This document shows positions 5,093-33,495 of a stretch of DNA of 52,186 nucleotides, piece by piece; positions within the stretch are counted from its first letter, which is position 1; each line of letters starts with the position of its first letter. The position numbers and the translations under genes were made by a program. Below the pieces are notes generated by a model. It saw nothing but the letters and a program-made list of their open reading frames with translations. It was not told where the DNA came from and made no database searches. This DNA comes from Bacteroidota bacterium (GTDB lineage Bacteria; Bacteroidota; Bacteroidia; SXHM01), in contig CANKAM010000005.1 of NCBI GenBank assembly GCA_947479755.1, positions 1-52,186 of the forward strand, read 5' to 3'.

Positions 5093-6732
5093 TTAGCAAC
5101 TGATTTCTTTACTTTTTTCAGCGTCAGTAAATTCATCGAATTGCTTCCTAAGCCTTGCACATCTTTATTTACAAAGCGCAGAACACGGTCATAATAAAGC
5201 GGAACAACCGGTGAATTATCAATGATGATGCTGTCCATTTCGCGATAGAGTATATAACGCAAACTGTCATTCACTTCATTCAAAGCAGTTTCATAAAGCT
5301 TGTCGTATTTATCATTTTTAAATAATGTATAGTTTGGTCCTTTAGGCGTAAAGTTTTTTGAATAATAAAGCGCAAGAAAATTTTCCGCATCGGCATAATC
5401 TGCAATCCATGACTTGCGCCAGAAAAGAGATTGAGCATTGGCCACCATTTCTCCATGTGTTCCGGGCGGGTTTACTTCGATCTTAATTTTCACACCTATC
5501 TCTGAAAGTTGGTGCTGAATATATTCACATAAATCAAGATACTGGCTCGTAGTATGCAGTGTAATTTCGGGCAATCCTTTTCCATTAGGATAGCCTGCCT
5601 GAGCAAGTAACTCACGCGCTTTTGCCGGGTTATAATCATAGCCTTTCAACTCCTTGCTGAACGAAGGTAATCCATCAGGAACAAAGCCATTCACAGCAGG
5701 TGCTCCGATATTATTACGGATATAACGCATCATTTTCACACGATCAATTCCGTAATTGATTGCTTGCCGAATTTCTTTTTTTCTGATCGGACTTTTCTTT
5801 ACTATTTCCAGACTATCATTCAGCAAAAAGCCAAGGTATTCTGTATTCAGGAAAGGTTGTGAAATCAAATTCACCTTATCTCTAAACTCTTCTTTCAATT
5901 CCCCCGAAGGAGTAATGATAGCATCTTTGTAACTCCCATCATCCAGACCCGAAAGCATATCAGTATTTCCTTTCACAAATTCAAGAAACGAACTTTGCGG
6001 ATCATTAATAAATGTGATGGAAACAGCATCTAAATAAGGCAGTTTATTTCCGTTATCTACTTCAAAATAATTTTCGTTTTTGTGAAGAACCAGTTTCACT
6101 CCTTCATACCACCATTTCATTTTAAAAGGACCTGTTCCAACCGGATTTCTACCAAAATCTTTTCCATAAAAATCAACTGCTTCTTCAGGAACTACGGAAC
6201 AATACTGCATTGTAAGCATTCCTATAAAAGGCGGAAAAGATGTTTTCAGATGAATAGCAAACGTTGAATCATTAGTTGCTTCAAAGCCTTTCCCATTTGT
6301 GAAATCCACATTATTAAAAATCCACCTTCCCGGTGAAAGAACCTTTTCATCAACAATGCGATTGAAACTATATACAAAATCAGAGGCAGTAATCTTTCTT
6401 CCTTTTTGATTTGTGAAAACCTCACTGTCATGAAAATAAACATCCTCACGCAAATGAAAAATGTAAACCAAACCCTCTTCCGAAATCTCCCAGTTCTTTG
6501 CTATACAAGGCTGAATGCGGGTCTCATCATCCATCTGTACTAAGCCATTAAACAGCTGATTTGCCGCCCAGATGTTTGCCATTGTGCGGGAAAACGCAGG
6601 ATCAAGAGAAGTAATTCCTTTGGGTTCGTTGTAACGGAAAACTGTTTTGCCTTCATGGCTATTCTTTTTCCCGGAACAGGAAAAAAGGAATACACTAATT
6701 AAAAAACACAAAATAATGTCTTTAAATTTCAT
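5089..6732 (-). CDS. ABC-type peptide substrate-binding lipoprotein (SBP_bac_5, DppA/OppA-like)
   Basis: A 547-residue lipoprotein. The signal peptide FLISVFLFSC has a clear lipobox cysteine at about residue 19. Family 5 features include ITSLDPAFSRTMANIWAANQ, ASDFVYSFNRIVD, GTGPFKMKWWYEGVKLVLHK and the domain II motif RKKEIRQAINYGIDR. The expected ligand is an oligopeptide. No permease or ATPase genes are adjacent, so any transporter must be encoded elsewhere. A weak -7 element (TATCTTCG on the minus strand, 6745-6738) ends only 5 bases before the ATG, so the transcript may be nearly leaderless. Confidence 0.93.
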   Translation of the reverse strand: MKFKDIILCFLISVFLFSCSGKKNSHEGKTVFRYNEPKGITSLDPAFSRTMANIWAANQLFNGLVQMDDETRIQPCIAKNWEISEEGLVYIFHLREDVYFHDSEVFTNQKGRKITASDFVYSFNRIVDEKVLSPGRWIFNNVDFTNGKGFEATNDSTFAIHLKTSFPPFIGMLTMQYCSVVPEEAVDFYGKDFGRNPVGTGPFKMKWWYEGVKLVLHKNENYFEVDNGNKLPYLDAVSITFINDPQSSFLEFVKGNTDMLSGLDDGSYKDAIITPSGELKEEFRDKVNLISQPFLNTEYLGFLLNDSLEIVKKSPIRKKEIRQAINYGIDRVKMMRYIRNNIGAPAVNGFVPDGLPSFSKELKGYDYNPAKARELLAQAGYPNGKGLPEITLHTTSQYLDLCEYIQHQLSEIGVKIKIEVNPPGTHGEMVANAQSLFWRKSWIADYADAENFLALYYSKNFTPKGPNYTLFKNDKYDKLYETALNEVNDSLRYILYREMDSIIIDNSPVVPLYYDRVLRFVNKDVQGLGSNSMNLLTLKKVKKSVAK

Positions 6733-27517: not shown

Positions 27518-27766
27518 ATGGCAAAACTAAAACTTGATCTGCACGAAATCTTTAACAAAGGTAAACAGATTGATGAGGCGCTGAATGATATTATTGACGA
27601 AGCGGTTGAACGCAGAGTTGATTTCGTTGAAATAATTCCTGGTAAAGGCAGTGGACAACTGAAGAAAAAAGTGCAACGCTTTCTGATGCAGAAGCACATT
27701 AAAGAAAAATACAAGCGTTTAGAAAACGACAGCAAAAACCACGGACGGATTTTTGTACACTTTTAA
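27518..27766 (+). CDS. Stand-alone Smr-domain protein
   Basis: 82 residues consisting of a single Smr (small MutS-related) domain. It has LDLHEI at the start, the helix IDEALNDIIDEAVERRVDFV, the loop EIIPGKGSGQLKKKVQRFL in place of the common HGxGxG, and the end GRIFVHF. Smr domains are nucleases or nucleic-acid binders in MutS2 and related proteins. The His of the LDLH motif is present, but the loop His is replaced by Pro (PGKGSG), so nuclease activity is uncertain. It is divergent from bcp. Confidence 0.9.
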   Translation: MAKLKLDLHEIFNKGKQIDEALNDIIDEAVERRVDFVEIIPGKGSGQLKKKVQRFLMQKHIKEKYKRLENDSKNHGRIFVHF

Positions 27767-27767
27767 A

Positions 27768-27902
27768 TCAGAATGGGAAGTGAAAGGCTTCAAATAAAAG
27801 CACTGTTAAAAAAATCACCAAGCCCCACAACAGTAGATTGGTTCTGCAATAGTCTATTGCCGATGCTATCTTATCGCCTAAAGTAATTTCGTTCTTTTTC
27901 AT
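27768..27902 (-). CDS. Small single-helix membrane protein (44 aa), copy 1
   Basis: ATG 27902 begins MKKNEITLGDKIASAIDYCR and continues into one membrane helix (LLLWGLVIFLTVLLFEAF), ending HFPF; an in-frame ATG at 27908 would add two residues. The N terminus is polar and basic, so an N-in orientation is expected. It is the same length as copy 2 (28073-28207) and ends in the same FHFxF pattern, which argues that both are real. It converges with the Smr gene, the stop lying 1 base beyond it. Function unknown. Confidence 0.65.
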   Translation of the reverse strand: MKKNEITLGDKIASAIDYCRTNLLLWGLVIFLTVLLFEAFHFPF

Positions 27903-27940
27903 ATGCATCAAGGGTTTAATAGTTATATTTTTATTTTCGT

Positions 27941-27965
27941 ATTGTTATGACAACAGCATAACAAT
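27941..27965. promoter_or_regulatory. Perfect dyad between the two small membrane genes
   Basis: ATTGTTATG and CATAACAAT are perfect 9-base inverted arms around ACAACAG. It lies 39 bases upstream of the ATG of copy 1 and has no poly-T tail on the minus strand, so an operator is more likely than a terminator. The rest of 27966-28072 is AT-rich and holds a short direct repeat GACTAAT; I see no gene in it. Confidence 0.5.
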
Positions 27966-28072
27966 TGCTTAACCCAAAACTAATAAACTGAAATACTGAA
28001 AAATAATTTTTAGACTAATGTGCATAATAAGTCGACTAATTTTGATTTTACTCTACCAAAACAATCAACTTA

Positions 28073-28207
28073 CTAAAAAGAAAAGTGAAACGAAGCCATT
28101 AGCATCAAGAAAATGAAACCCAGTAACAGAAAATAAATTGAGTAAGTAAAAAAACGCTCACCAAAAGAAATAATTGTATTCCAGAAATTATAAGTGGTTC
28201 TTTTCAT
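28073..28207 (-). CDS. Small single-helix membrane protein (44 aa), copy 2
   Basis: ATG 28207 begins MKRTTYNFWNTIISFGERFF, followed by one membrane helix (IYFLLLGFIFLMLMASF) and the end HFSF, then TAG. It has exactly the same length as copy 1 and shares the basic start, the helix placement in the second half and the terminal FHFxF, but little identity elsewhere. It begins 88 bp after the stop of the moxR gene on the same strand and may be read from that operon. Function unknown. Confidence 0.65.
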   Translation of the reverse strand: MKRTTYNFWNTIISFGERFFTYSIYFLLLGFIFLMLMASFHFSF

Positions 28208-28295
28208 TATGCTGGTTTCAACTTGCTAATCCTGTAAATAGTTTAGCGAAATCGATAAACGACACAATGAATGTATCAAAGGGAAAACTGAATAC

Positions 28296-29261
28296 TTACT
28301 TCAATAACTCCTTAATAATATCTTCAACAGATAATCCATCAGCCTCAGCTTTATAATTGCGAACAATACGATGGCGCAACACGGCAGGGGCTAGAGCCTT
28401 CACATCTTCTATGTCGGGCGAGTATTTTCCGTTGATGGCGGCATTGGTTTTAGCGCCAATCACTAAGTACTGCGATGCGCGGGGACCTGCTCCCCAACTC
28501 AGATAATTATTGATAGTATCATTGGCATATTTAGTTCCGGGGCGGGTACTGGTCGCTAATTTTACTGCATATTCCAATACGTTATCTGCAACTGGCAATT
28601 TGGTAAGCAACTGTTGAAAAAACAATATTTCTTCGGCACTTAATACTTTATTTGGTTTAATACCTACCGCACCGGTTGTTTGTTTAACAATGTTCAACTC
28701 TTCTGTAAAACTGGGATAATCCAGCCAGATATTAAACATAAAACGGTCAAGCTGAGCTTCTGGCAATGGATAAGTTCCCTCCTGCTCTATTGGGTTTTGT
28801 GTAGCCAGAACAAAGAACGGTTTATCTAATACATATCGTTTTCCTGCAGTGGTAACAGCACGCTCCTGCATCGCTTCCAGCAATGCCGATTGTGTTTTTG
28901 GCGGGGTTCTATTTATCTCATCTGCCAAAATAATATTAGCAAACAGAGGTCCTTTAATGAACTTGAATTGACGAGTATCATCCAATATCTCCGTACCGAT
29001 AATATCACTCGGCATAAGATCAGGAGTAAACTGAATGCGGTTGTAGCTTAATCCAAGTGCTTCGGAAATAGTATTTACCAATAATGTTTTCGCCAAACCG
29101 GGAACACCTACCAGCAAACAGTGTCCGTTACTGAAGATAGAAGTAAGTACGCTTTTTACCACCTCGTCCTGTCCGACAATTACTTTGGCTATTTCGCTGT
29201 TCAGTTTCTTATAAGAAACCACAAATGCATCTATTGCTTCTTTGTCTGATGTATAGTTCAT
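28296..29261 (-). CDS. MoxR-family AAA+ ATPase (second copy)
   Basis: 321 residues with Walker A GVPGLAKT, Walker B ILADEINRTPPKTQSALLEA, LATQNPIEQEGTYPLPEAQL and the arginine region PEAQLDRFMFNIWL. It belongs to the same family as 2717-3700 but is clearly diverged, and no DUF58 or VWA gene follows. Instead it ends a minus-strand series of periplasmic foldase genes, 7 bp behind the SurA-like gene. The client may therefore be an envelope-assembly factor; this is inference from context. Confidence 0.94.
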   Translation of the reverse strand: MNYTSDKEAIDAFVVSYKKLNSEIAKVIVGQDEVVKSVLTSIFSNGHCLLVGVPGLAKTLLVNTISEALGLSYNRIQFTPDLMPSDIIGTEILDDTRQFKFIKGPLFANIILADEINRTPPKTQSALLEAMQERAVTTAGKRYVLDKPFFVLATQNPIEQEGTYPLPEAQLDRFMFNIWLDYPSFTEELNIVKQTTGAVGIKPNKVLSAEEILFFQQLLTKLPVADNVLEYAVKLATSTRPGTKYANDTINNYLSWGAGPRASQYLVIGAKTNAAINGKYSPDIEDVKALAPAVLRHRIVRNYKAEADGLSVEDIIKELLK

Positions 29262-29268
29262 AAATTCT

Positions 29269-30615
29269 TTAGTTTGTCTTCTTTATCCAGGGATTATTAA
29301 AATCGCAATTTAAATATGCATCATCAATACGCACATACGTGGTCGCAATTTTCTTTTCTATCCATTCACGCACCAAGTTGCTTTCTTTCATGGTTGATGC
29401 TGCGCCCTGTATCTTTTGATAATCGTCACGCAAGTTTGCTTTATGCGGTTCGGTGCGTGACTTTAATAAGATAATGCTGTAAGCCTGTTTACCATCCGCA
29501 GCGCTGGTAATAATTGGTTTTGAAAACTCACCAACTTCCATTTTATCAATAGTAAGAAACAATGTTGGGTCAATGCTACTGAGTTGGTCCATCTCAAATT
29601 TGGTGCTTCCTGTTTGTGCATTTGTCACCATCCCTCCGTTCTTTTTGTCAGCTTCATCGTCTGAAAATTTTTCAGCAGCCTCCGCAAAAGTGAGCGAATC
29701 TGTCTTCAATAAATCATAGATACTATCGAGAAAAATTTTAGAACTTGTTAAATCGTTTTCTGATGTTTTTGGGGTAATTAAGATGTGACGCGCATTCACC
29801 TGTTCCCCTCTGCGTTCAATTACCTGCAAAAAGTGAAAACCATACTCGGTCTCGAATACTTCTGATATTTCTTTCCCTTGCAGACTAAACGCCAAAGCTT
29901 CAAATTCAGGAACCATGTTACCGCGTCCGAAAAAACCAAGTTCACCTCCTGCTGAAGCAGAGCCCGGATCTTCACTATACAGTTTTGCCATGGTCTCAAA
30001 CTTAGCTCCGTCAAGAATACGCTGACGCAATTCCTCTGCTCGCGCTTTTGCTTCATCTTTTTCTTTTTTGCTTATCATCGGCTTCTTAACAATGCGACCA
30101 ATCTCCAACTCCACATTAATATAAGGCAAACTATCAGCCGGTATTTTGCTGAAATAGTTGCGTACATCAGCAGGAGTAACTTTAATCTCCCCCGTGATTT
30201 TGTATTGCATATTCTGAGCAAGCAACTGGTCTTTAATCAACTCACGGAAATCATCTTTAATCTCCACAATTGATTTCTTGTAATACTCTTCCAGCTTTTC
30301 CTCTGAGCCTATTTGTCCTATAAAATAACGCAATCTGCGGTCCAATTCTTCTTCCACCTGATCATCACTCACCTCAACACTGTCTAATCGCGCCTGATTA
30401 ACCAGCAATTTCTGGAAAAGCAACTCTTCCAGCAAGTCGCATTTAATAGTAGGGTCTTCTGAATAACCTTGTGATAATATCTGAAGATATTGTGCTTCTA
30501 CCTCACTTAACATGATGATGTTGGAGCCCACAACTGCAACAATCTTATCTATTGGCTGCGCAAAAGAACTAAGAACAAAGAACCAAGAACCAAGAATTAT
30601 GATATATTTTCTCAC
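29269..30615 (-). CDS. SurA-like periplasmic peptidyl-prolyl isomerase/chaperone
   Basis: 448 residues. The signal peptide ends SSFAQ, followed by a SurA N-terminal chaperone region (PIDKIVAVVGSNIIMLSEVE, LLEELLFQKLLVNQARLDSV). The first parvulin domain is at about 172-270 (GGELGFFGRGNMVPEFEALA, YGFHFLQVIERR) and a second begins at VNARHILITPK. The order N-domain, parvulin, parvulin matches SurA, which escorts outer-membrane proteins. The hydrophobic core of the signal peptide is encoded by a dispersed simple repeat (30564-30598). It lies in the foldase-moxR operon. Confidence 0.9.
   Translation of the reverse strand: MRKYIIILGSWFFVLSSFAQPIDKIVAVVGSNIIMLSEVEAQYLQILSQGYSEDPTIKCDLLEELLFQKLLVNQARLDSVEVSDDQVEEELDRRLRYFIGQIGSEEKLEEYYKKSIVEIKDDFRELIKDQLLAQNMQYKITGEIKVTPADVRNYFSKIPADSLPYINVELEIGRIVKKPMISKKEKDEAKARAEELRQRILDGAKFETMAKLYSEDPGSASAGGELGFFGRGNMVPEFEALAFSLQGKEISEVFETEYGFHFLQVIERRGEQVNARHILITPKTSENDLTSSKIFLDSIYDLLKTDSLTFAEAAEKFSDDEADKKNGGMVTNAQTGSTKFEMDQLSSIDPTLFLTIDKMEVGEFSKPIITSAADGKQAYSIILLKSRTEPHKANLRDDYQKIQGAASTMKESNLVREWIEKKIATTYVRIDDAYLNCDFNNPWIKKTN
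30564..30598. repeat. AAGAAC-type repeat encoding the SurA-like signal peptide core
   Basis: The plus strand reads AGAACTAAGAACAAAGAACC and continues AAGAACCAAGAATT, about five degenerate copies of a 7-base unit. On the minus strand it encodes ILGSWFFVLSS. The same word pattern is known to me as intergenic repeat DNA in Bacteroidota. Confidence 0.55.
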
Positions 30616-30620
30616 TGTGT

Positions 30621-31511
30621 TTATTTTTTCTTCGCTGTGTAAATTTCAAAATTATTTTTGATTGCGCCTTCCTTCATCACATCTTTTTCCAATTGTTCAA
30701 TAAGTTGCATCTTACGCTTGTTCAATATAATGTTGCGGATATTTTTTACCTCAAATTCCAAAGGCGAAATATCGTCTTTTAATTGATACTCCAATGTTTT
30801 TACAATGTAATACCCCTCGTTTTGATCCATTTCATAGAAGTTTGAGTAGCGCGCCATTTGCTCAATTTTATTTTGGTCAATTCCTGTTTCTTCTGCAAGC
30901 TCATCGGTCTTAAACCATTTGTGCTCATCTAATGAAAATTTCAGTGCCTGTGTGCTGCAGTACTCTGTTAACTTATTCTTGCTATCCGCATCCTCATCTT
31001 TCATCCACTTCCTTATTTTATTCACCGACTTGTTTTGCTTGTCTAGCTTAACGTAAACCGTGCGTAAAATATTTTCTTTCAGTGCAAAGTTTTGTTTGTT
31101 CTCTTCATAATAGGACAAAAGTTCGTTCTGCTTTACAACTGTATCTAAGCGTTGTTTCACAAGTTCTTCCTGATAAAGATAGAGAATGAGTGAATTGCGG
31201 TATTGCTCTAACTGCAACTGAACATCTTTCTTTTCTTCCGGCAAGTTAAGTTCAGCTTTCTTTATCAGCAACTGCTGTTTAACCCAGTTGTTTATAAAGT
31301 TTGCAGCAAGTTGGGAACTATCTTCTGCGCTTATGCCTGAAGGTATGCCACCGTTCAGTTGTTCAACATAAAGATACTGGTCATACACACGAGCAAGAGG
31401 CTTCTCATCACTCTCTTTTCTGAAATACTTACAGGATGGAAACAGAAAAACCAAACACCCCAAAAGCAACAAGTGATGATGAAATGAAAACCGTGTTTCG
31501 CAATTCATCAT
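30621..31511 (-). CDS. PpiC/SurA-N-like periplasmic lipoprotein
   Basis: About 296 residues from ATGATG at 31511; TTG 31538 is an alternative start. A hydrophobic segment HHLLLLGCLVFLFPSC carries a lipobox (FPSC). The body contains a SurA-type N-terminal chaperone pattern (LAANFINNWVKQQLLIKKAE, LILYLYQEELVKQRLDTVVK) and a degenerate C-terminal part. No clear parvulin active site is seen, so it is probably a chaperone without isomerase activity. It sits between the other two foldases with gaps of 5 and about 31 bases. A strong hairpin covers the ATGATG start (see 31468-31519). Confidence 0.82.
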   Translation of the reverse strand: MMNCETRFSFHHHLLLLGCLVFLFPSCKYFRKESDEKPLARVYDQYLYVEQLNGGIPSGISAEDSSQLAANFINNWVKQQLLIKKAELNLPEEKKDVQLQLEQYRNSLILYLYQEELVKQRLDTVVKQNELLSYYEENKQNFALKENILRTVYVKLDKQNKSVNKIRKWMKDEDADSKNKLTEYCSTQALKFSLDEHKWFKTDELAEETGIDQNKIEQMARYSNFYEMDQNEGYYIVKTLEYQLKDDISPLEFEVKNIRNIILNKRKMQLIEQLEKDVMKEGAIKNNFEIYTAKKK

Positions 31512-31519
31512 CACTTGTT
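31468..31519 (-). promoter_or_regulatory. 16-bp inverted repeat covering a start codon
   Basis: AACAAGTGATGATGAA (31468-31483) and TTCATCATCACTTGTT (31504-31519) are perfect complements with a 20-base loop. On the transcript the first arm contains the ATGATG start codons (31511-31506) and the second arm encodes FHHHLL. The folded mRNA would bury the start site. TTG 31538 lies outside the hairpin. Confidence 0.7.
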
Positions 31520-31542
31520 TTTTAATTCCTATCAACAATTCT

Positions 31543-33495
31543 CTATGGAGTAGGGATAGTTGCCAATACCTCTTTATTCACTTCTACTTTGTATTTTCCG
31601 CGCAACTCTTTTATCCATTCTTTTTCAAGGTAATCCTGGTAAGCTGTGGTAAGAAGCCCTTTTGCTTCTTTCAGTGTTTTTGGTCCCGGGGCAAGTACGT
31701 CATTTACAATAACAATAATTGTCTGTCCGTCTTTTTTAACAGTTTGAATAGTGTTATTAGTCCATTTTACTTCATCCAGATAATCGTTCTCATCTTTGAT
31801 ATACTTTCCTGCTTCCACTTTCAGATTCAGTTTAGATGTCTTGTTCATATCTGCCAATATCTCGTCAGAAGTTTTACCGGCATCAATCATTTTTCTGGTT
31901 GCTGTTGCGACCGAATCGTTCTTGCAGATAAAGAGTTTAGCATCTAAACGCTCTTCCCACTGAAACTTATCTTTGCTGGTTTCATAATACTTCTGCAAAC
32001 CAACGGTGTCAATCTGCGCTTTCTTCCAAACTTTTTGCTCCATGTGATTGAAAAGAAGAATTCCATCGCGGTATTCATTCAGCAACATACGGTAGTCAGT
32101 ATATTTTGAAGCAAGTTTACTCTCTTCATATTTAATCAACTCTTCTTCAACAAACTGTTTATACATATTATCAACGTAAGTCTGTATCTCCGTTTTAGGT
32201 CGTTTTGCCTGATGTGAAGCAAGGTAATCTGCAAAACCTTTTTGAGTGAATTTCACACCACCAAGATTAAATAGTTCTTTTTCCAAGCCTTTAGCTTTAT
32301 CAGCAGTCCATTTTCCATTGAAAATGTTGGTATCAACCGCAGTATAAAATGCATTAAGTGCTTTTTTCTTTTCTTTGAATTTATACTCTGCTTTTATCTT
32401 ATTGATAACAGCGGTGCGGCTCATTTGCGATCGTGAATCTTTTGAAATCTTCTGTTTTAATTCGCCTTCCAATTCTTTAAATTCAGGCAAGCCTTTTTTA
32501 TCTAACAATTTAATGATGTGCCAACCGTAATCAGTTTTAACAGGTTTGCTGTAATCATCTCTATTTTTAAGCGCAAATGCAGCTGCTTCAAACTCAGGAA
32601 CCATCTGCCCTGAACCAAACCAATTCAATTCACCACCTTTTTTAGAATTTGATTTATCATCAGAAAACTGTTTACATAACTCACTAAAATCACCACCTGC
32701 TTGTAGTTTTGAATAAATCTCATTTGCTTTTGCTTCAGCAGCATCAGTTGCCTGTCTACCCGAATCTTTCAGCGCTTTAATCATGATGTGAGCTACCTTC
32801 ACTTCACCTTGAGAAGCACGTTTGTCAACCACTTTTATAATGTGGTAGCCGAATTTTGTTCTAACGGGTTGAGAAATTTCTCCAACAGGTGTATTGTAAG
32901 CACCATTTTCAAAAGGATAAATCATACGCATAGAAGTGAAGTAACCCAAATCACCGCTGTTATCTTTTGCAGATGGATCTTCTGATAGGTCTTTTGCCAG
33001 TTTACCAAAGTCTTCTCCTTTCAAAGCGCGTTTCCGTATTTCATTGATTTTGTTCCAGGCAGCCAATGTGTCTTTAGGCAATGCCTCAGCAGAAATTTTA
33101 ATAAGAATATGGCTGGCGCGCACATCTGTTTTCATGCGCTCATACGCTTCTTTAATGAGGTTTTCCGTAACTGCTTTATCGGTCAGGTAAGGTTGCGCTA
33201 ATTGTTTTTGGTATCCGCTGAACTCCTGCTTGAAAGCCTTTGCAGTATCCATTCCTGCATCAACAGCCTCTTTTACTTTCAATTTAAAATTGATGTAAAG
33301 CTCCATGTAATCAACAGGCGATTTTTTATCAATTGCCGCTCCGTTAGAGTTGTTCTTGTTGTAAACGTAAAGAAAGTCGGATTTGGTAACCGGTTCGCCT
33401 GCCACTATAAGAATTACAGGCTCACCTTTTTGTGCATAAGATGCAAAGGAAATTGCTGCGGAAATTGCTGTAAACACTAATTTTCTGGTCTTCAT
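31543..33495 (-). CDS. Multi-domain PpiC-type peptidyl-prolyl isomerase
   Basis: 650 residues with signal peptide MKTRKLVFTAISAAISFASY-AQ. Two consecutive parvulin domains are visible: DVRASHILIKIS ... GDLGYFTSMRMIYPFENGAY ... FGYHIIKVVDKR (about 123-220) and VKVAHIMIKALKDSG ... GGELNWFGSGQMVPEFEAAA ... YGWHIIKLLDKK (about 227-335). A long C-terminal part of about 310 residues with a partial third foldase-like region follows. It is periplasmic. It begins the three-foldase series, 90 bp behind guaB on the same strand. The likely role is folding and quality control of exported proteins. Confidence 0.9.
   Translation of the reverse strand: MKTRKLVFTAISAAISFASYAQKGEPVILIVAGEPVTKSDFLYVYNKNNSNGAAIDKKSPVDYMELYINFKLKVKEAVDAGMDTAKAFKQEFSGYQKQLAQPYLTDKAVTENLIKEAYERMKTDVRASHILIKISAEALPKDTLAAWNKINEIRKRALKGEDFGKLAKDLSEDPSAKDNSGDLGYFTSMRMIYPFENGAYNTPVGEISQPVRTKFGYHIIKVVDKRASQGEVKVAHIMIKALKDSGRQATDAAEAKANEIYSKLQAGGDFSELCKQFSDDKSNSKKGGELNWFGSGQMVPEFEAAAFALKNRDDYSKPVKTDYGWHIIKLLDKKGLPEFKELEGELKQKISKDSRSQMSRTAVINKIKAEYKFKEKKKALNAFYTAVDTNIFNGKWTADKAKGLEKELFNLGGVKFTQKGFADYLASHQAKRPKTEIQTYVDNMYKQFVEEELIKYEESKLASKYTDYRMLLNEYRDGILLFNHMEQKVWKKAQIDTVGLQKYYETSKDKFQWEERLDAKLFICKNDSVATATRKMIDAGKTSDEILADMNKTSKLNLKVEAGKYIKDENDYLDEVKWTNNTIQTVKKDGQTIIVIVNDVLAPGPKTLKEAKGLLTTAYQDYLEKEWIKELRGKYKVEVNKEVLATIPTP

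What the first reader, a model, noticed from the sequence alone, without database searches (positions are those of the whole stretch)
27768..28207. A pair of 44-codon single-helix membrane proteins with shared FHFxF end
Two unannotated minus-strand frames have exactly the same length (44 codons), a basic N terminus (MKKN and MKRT), one membrane helix in the second half and the ending AFHFPF or SFHFSF. They share little other identity, so the similarity is of structure and C terminus, not recent duplication. A perfect 9-bp dyad lies between them. Small paired membrane proteins with conserved C termini often act as regulators, toxins or complex subunits; which applies here is open.
Basis: partly seen in the sequence, partly recalled or inferred. 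Interest (0 to 1): 0.72.

Follow-up and report, generated by a model that had tools for sequence, protein, structure and literature searches.

The report
Orphan pair of small membrane proteins
Two neighbouring 44-residue membrane proteins that no annotation library used here knows are real genes under strong selection, look like ancient copies of each other, and belong to a small family found so far only in one genus of uncultured Bacteroidota; what they do is not shown.

Summary
Window 27768-27902 (-) and 28073-28207 (-) each encode 44 residues forming one helix, with basic N termini and a perfect 9-bp dyad between them. Both are real genes. The tandem pair recurs in 6 of 7 genomes of the genus (the only genus held in its order), with dN/dS of 0.04-0.12 (ORF1, 27768) and 0.08-0.20 (ORF2, 28073) among the five moxR-linked loci. 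The shared FHFxF end is only partly real: kept in ORF1 (AFHFPF; AFDFPY in one genome), drifting in ORF2 (FHFSF, FDFSF, FGFSF, FHLSF, FNIVV). Their gapless similarity is position-specific (12/44 identities; permutation p 2e-4 to 1e-3), so they look like ancient paralogues. A third member (42 aa) lies behind uvrA in three genomes. One genome carries the whole pair behind uvrA instead of moxR; one lacks the family at both sites. Dedicated cis elements travel with the genes: a 21-bp motif 52-53 nt before every ORF2-type start (9 of 9 genomic occurrences), and a spaced repeat plus TAnnTTTG box before ORF1. No relative was found elsewhere. Best reading: regulated small accessory subunits or modulators of an inner-membrane complex. 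A type I-like toxin pair is the main rival.

The parts
27768..27902 (-). ORF1, 44 aa, amphipathic N-terminal half plus one membrane helix, end AFHFPF
   Evidence: (conserved in 6 genomes, dN/dS 0.04-0.12)
28073..28207 (-). ORF2, 44 aa, single membrane helix, end SFHFSF (end not conserved)
   Evidence: (dN/dS 0.08-0.20)
28240..28260 (-). ORF2 leader motif GTTTATCGATTTCGCTAAACT, 53 nt before the start codon; in 7 genomes it occurs only in front of family genes
   Evidence: 9 occurrences, all at family genes, always 52-53 nt from the start; 0 in the genome without the genes
28218..28255 (-). Predicted 12-bp RNA hairpin in the ORF2 leader (7+5 bp with one bulged base)
   Evidence: 60 of 60 cells paired in five genomes; three variable pairs, all one-sided changes; no double-sided change
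28009..28039 (-). Spaced direct repeat TTAGTCGAC-N12-TTAGTCTAAA upstream of ORF1, 21-bp period
   Evidence: found only upstream of ORF1-type genes; 26 bp from the -7 box in both G000 and G005
27975..27982 (-). TAGTTTTG, candidate Bacteroidota -7 promoter box for ORF1
   Evidence: TAnnTTTG at the corresponding place in all six genomes
27941..27965 (-). Perfect 9-bp dyad, predicted hairpin in the ORF1 leader
   Evidence: 87% of cells paired in five genomes, one double-sided change

Best explanation
The two frames are real genes: an ancient tandem duplicate pair of small bitopic inner-membrane proteins, with the basic N-terminal half in the cytoplasm and only a few aromatic residues outside. Each has its own leader with conserved control elements, so they are probably switched on conditionally rather than only read through from moxR. 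The most likely job is as accessory or regulatory subunits: the two helices associate with each other or with a larger membrane protein, ORF1 making a specific contact through its nearly invariant juxtamembrane stretch IDYCRTNLxLWG. Shown: reality, purifying selection, pairing, paralogy (statistically), dedicated cis elements, restriction to the genus within the genomes searched; the single helix is a structure prediction. Inferred: membrane topology, conditional expression, partnership with each other or with a larger complex.
For: Pair with open frames in 6 of 7 same-genus genomes; strong purifying selection; pair kept together at two different loci, moxR-smr and uvrA-esterase, so the unit is the pair and not its neighbours; ORF1 keeps IDYCRTN, LWG and EAFxFP in the divergent copy at 66% identity, as expected of a protein contact; ORF1, ORF2 and the third member align over full length; one helix each; basic residues before the helix, no K or R after it; family-specific leader elements at fixed spacing.
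Against: No partner gene is constantly next to the pair; one 98%-complete genome (G002) lacks it at both known sites and by profile, so it is dispensable; narrow distribution is unusual for subunits of core complexes; no expression data; the related loci come from metagenome-assembled genomes.
Confidence: 0.45

Rival explanations
1. A type I toxin-like pair: small hydrophobic peptides that depolarise the cell's own membrane, held silent by structured leaders and perhaps by an undetected antisense or trans RNA, and kept as duplicated, lineage-restricted genes.
For: Size under 60 aa with one membrane helix, tandem and dispersed paralogues, presence/absence between species, predicted structured leaders, confinement to one genus.
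Against: No conserved promoter on the opposite strand (an antisense TAnnTTTG at one place is shared only by G000 and G004); no Rfam RNA; no cationic C terminus, a common feature of these toxins according to PMC8309996; ORF1 is kept at 89-95% identity across the five genomes that have it at moxR.
Confidence: 0.25
2. Structural subunits of a constitutive energy or transport complex, in the manner of CydX or KdpF.
For: Single-helix bitopic form, strong selection, conserved helix-flanking residues.
Against: No respiratory or pump genes next to it; absent from one near-complete sister genome and from the other Bacteroidota searched.
Confidence: 0.12
3. Small mobile or selfish cassette whose cargo happens to be short membrane peptides, moving between intergenic sites.
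For: Two alternative sites, empty sites in G002 and (at uvrA) G006, a different gene at the moxR-smr site in G005.
Against: No transposase or integrase seen at either site; leader elements and gene order are kept, and differential loss after an old duplication explains the pattern as well.
Confidence: 0.08
4. Chance open frames.
For: Short length, no annotation match.
Against: Codon-position pattern and dN/dS in two independent frames, conservation at a second locus.
Confidence: 0.01

Closest known systems
Membrane-associated type I toxins (Fst/Ldr, Ibs, TisB, AapA1)
   Same: Size, single membrane helix, paralogues, predicted structured leaders, narrow distribution
   Different: No antisense gene detected, no cationic C terminus, strongly conserved cytoplasmic half of ORF1, no toxicity known
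Small bitopic accessory subunits and regulators (CydX, KdpF, MgrB, AcrZ type; from general knowledge)
   Same: About 30-50 aa, one helix, short tails, purifying selection
   Different: No sequence relation (no family match), no linked partner operon, found as a tandem paralogue pair with separate leaders
Photosystem II protein L and light-harvesting alpha chain (best PDB sequence hits)
   Same: Only a hydrophobic helix of similar length
   Different: E about 0.4 on a 20-residue hydrophobic stretch; not a relative

Membership tests
Type I toxin-antitoxin module | Short hydrophobic protein with one membrane helix | tested here: met
Type I toxin-antitoxin module | Antisense or adjacent RNA antitoxin gene | tested here: not met
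   no conserved opposite-strand promoter, no Rfam match; a trans-encoded RNA cannot be excluded
Type I toxin-antitoxin module | Cationic residues near the C terminus (common, not universal; PMC8309996) | tested here: not met
   no K or R after the helix in any of five representatives
Type I toxin-antitoxin module | Toxicity on overexpression, neutralised by an RNA | not testable with these tools
   needs an expression assay
Small accessory subunits (CydX/KdpF type) | Sequence match to a known subunit family | tested here: not met
   Pfam, NCBIfam, PHROGs, PADLOC: no hit up to E 1-10
Small accessory subunits (CydX/KdpF type) | Physical association with a larger membrane complex | not testable with these tools
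   needs pull-down or structure of the complex
The family described here | 42-47 aa, M[KRS][KR] start, helix with membrane stretch from about residue 23, F31, L36 and F40 invariant | tested here: met
   alignment A6; profile A6 recovers all three copies in the window's genome at E below 2e-17 and nothing in 394 other genomes of the phylum at E 0.005
LytTR-type regulator site (for the ORF1 upstream repeat) | Two direct repeats about 21-22 bp apart just upstream of the promoter | tested here: inconclusive
   spacing and position fit (the 21-22 bp figure is from general knowledge), but the repeat was not tied to any regulator

The most novel reading that the evidence does not exclude
A genus-specific membrane switch made of two paralogous micro-proteins, each governed by its own dedicated leader (a 21-bp element at fixed distance from the start codon plus a hairpin for one, a spaced repeat and promoter for the other), that assemble as a heteromer on an inner-membrane target.
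Probability: 0.2. Interest if true: 0.6.

Novelty: new member of a known kind. Interest (0 to 1): 0.42.

Why it matters
Small membrane proteins are among the least annotated parts of bacterial genomes. Here comparative data show that two such frames are genuine, form a family with a third copy, and carry cis elements found nowhere else in the genus, so the family can be defined, searched and tested. The leader motif offers an unusually specific handle for finding the regulator.

Tried and rejected
Linkage to moxR as the functional clue: rejected, because the pair sits behind uvrA in G005 and G002 keeps moxR without it. The reading of the G005 locus as orthologous to the window's: rejected, it is the uvrA site, and the G005 moxR-smr site holds a lipoprotein-like gene. 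Distant relatives in the class: 395 genomes with A1 or A3 gave only weak hydrophobic matches in unrelated or interrupted frames. Phages and plasmids (ORF1 only) and viral contigs (both profiles): nothing. Remnant of the pair in the empty G002 site: no better than shuffled sequence. Conserved antisense promoter: none. Double-sided covariation for the ORF2 hairpin: none; changes are one-sided only, and its right arm is not kept in the uvrA-site copies, so the 21-bp motif may act as DNA rather than RNA. Paper searches for a described Bacteroidota family of this kind returned nothing that matches.

Full report
Observation. Both frames exist as described. ORF1 is 27768-27902 and ORF2 is 28073-28207, both on the minus strand, downstream of a MoxR-type ATPase (28296-29261) and facing a convergent small Smr-domain-like gene (27518-27766); those two names rest on my reading of the sequences. 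The dyad between the ORFs is at 27941-27965.

They are real genes. The window's order is represented by one genus, seven genomes. ORF1 is found at full length in six and ORF2 in six; the seventh, G002, 98% complete, has neither. Among the five moxR-linked loci the differences fall at codon positions 1/2/3 as 33/4/137 for ORF1 and 75/34/132 for ORF2, and dN/dS is 0.04-0.12 and 0.08-0.20, against 0.01-0.02 for moxR. The proteins are unknown to Pfam, NCBIfam, PHROGs and PADLOC.

The FHFxF end. ORF1 keeps AFHFPF in five genomes and has AFDFPY in G005. ORF2 has FHFSF (window), FDFSF (two genomes), FGFSF, FHLSF and, in G005, FNIVV; in G003 it runs three residues further. F40 is invariant in all members. 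The shared ending in the window is therefore a partly inherited, partly accidental likeness.

One family. Profile comparison aligns ORF1 and ORF2 without gaps over 44 columns (27% identity, probability 75). Shuffling columns within segments, so that composition and architecture stay the same, reaches the observed score in 0.02 to 0.1% of cases, so the likeness is position-specific. A third gene, 42 aa, was met behind uvrA in G000 (contig C4, 101403-101531), G003 and G004; it scores against both. Ancient tandem duplication is the simplest account.

Two loci. At moxR-smr, five genomes carry the pair, G002 is empty and G005 has a lipoprotein-like gene. At uvrA-esterase, G005 has the whole pair, G000, G003 and G004 have the single gene, and G006 and G002 are empty; G001's uvrA was not found (68% complete). 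By uvrA and moxR distances G005 is the most divergent, and G002 groups with G001, a pair carrier, in the moxR tree with weak support (72). Loss in G002 after presence in the common ancestor is likely but not proven.

Cis elements. GTTWATCGANTWNNNNAAACY occurs nine times in the seven genomes, each time 52-53 nt before an ORF2-type start (pair or single), and never in G002. The pattern was derived from these genes, so finding them is expected; the information lies in its finding nothing else and in the constant spacing although the sequence between motif and start has diverged. TTARTCGR-N10-14-TTRGTCTAAA occurs only before ORF1-type genes, and a TAnnTTTG box, the Bacteroidota -7 element (PMC6847099), is at the corresponding place in six of six. 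In the window the box reads TAGTTTTG; that paper reports G as virtually absent at the third position in F. johnsoniae, so the promoter may be weak. Hairpins are predicted in both leaders: the ORF2 one pairs in all 60 cells over five genomes with one-sided changes only, the ORF1 one in 87% with one double-sided change. Five sequences are too few for a covariation claim. In Bacteroidota, initiation is tuned by mRNA structure near the start codon (PMC6847099), so translational control is plausible.

Mechanism. AlphaFold2 predicts one long helix in each (mean pLDDT 83 and 88). Basic residues only before the membrane stretch imply an N-in topology by the positive-inside rule. ORF1's juxtamembrane IDYCRTN and LWG are unchanged in the most divergent copy, pointing to a specific contact on the cytoplasmic face. 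I take conditional accessory or regulatory subunits of a membrane complex as most likely (0.45), and a type I-like toxin pair as next (0.25); against the latter are the lack of a conserved antisense promoter and of a cationic C terminus.

Distribution. With the six-row ORF1 profile and the ORF2 profile, 395 genomes of the class gave strong matches only in the genus; the joint profile in 395 genomes of the phylum found only the window's own three copies at E 0.005. The genome-contig scan returned only the same five relatives, all metagenome-assembled genomes.

Limits. Everything rests on metagenome-assembled genomes, presence or absence cannot be judged fully in G001 and G005 (68% and 78% complete), a 44-residue hydrophobic protein can diverge beyond recognition so the genus restriction is a statement about detectable relatives, and function is inferred.

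Noticed in passing
L033 about 5160-5240 (G005, behind the ORF1 copy), and the G002 region between smr and the peroxiredoxin gene in L034: Inverted repeats of the kind CACTTCGAGCGTAGTCGAGAAG / CTTCTCGACTACGCTCGAAGTG, a REP-like palindrome, lie near these variable intergenic sites.
   Followed up: no
L089 about 1030-1460 (G005 moxR-smr site): A lipoprotein-like gene (MKKFNYFLFSALVVVVLTVSCRKEHDEAVTKVID...) occupies the site where other genomes carry the small pair, so this intergenic space holds variable cargo.
   Followed up: partly
G000 contig C4 101403-101531 (L024 1501-1629): Third family member, 42 aa, behind uvrA, with the same upstream motif at 52 nt; not annotated by any library used.
   Followed up: yes
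window 29269-33495 (-): Three consecutive genes with parvulin/SurA-like sequence upstream of moxR; the order is kept in L032.
   Followed up: no
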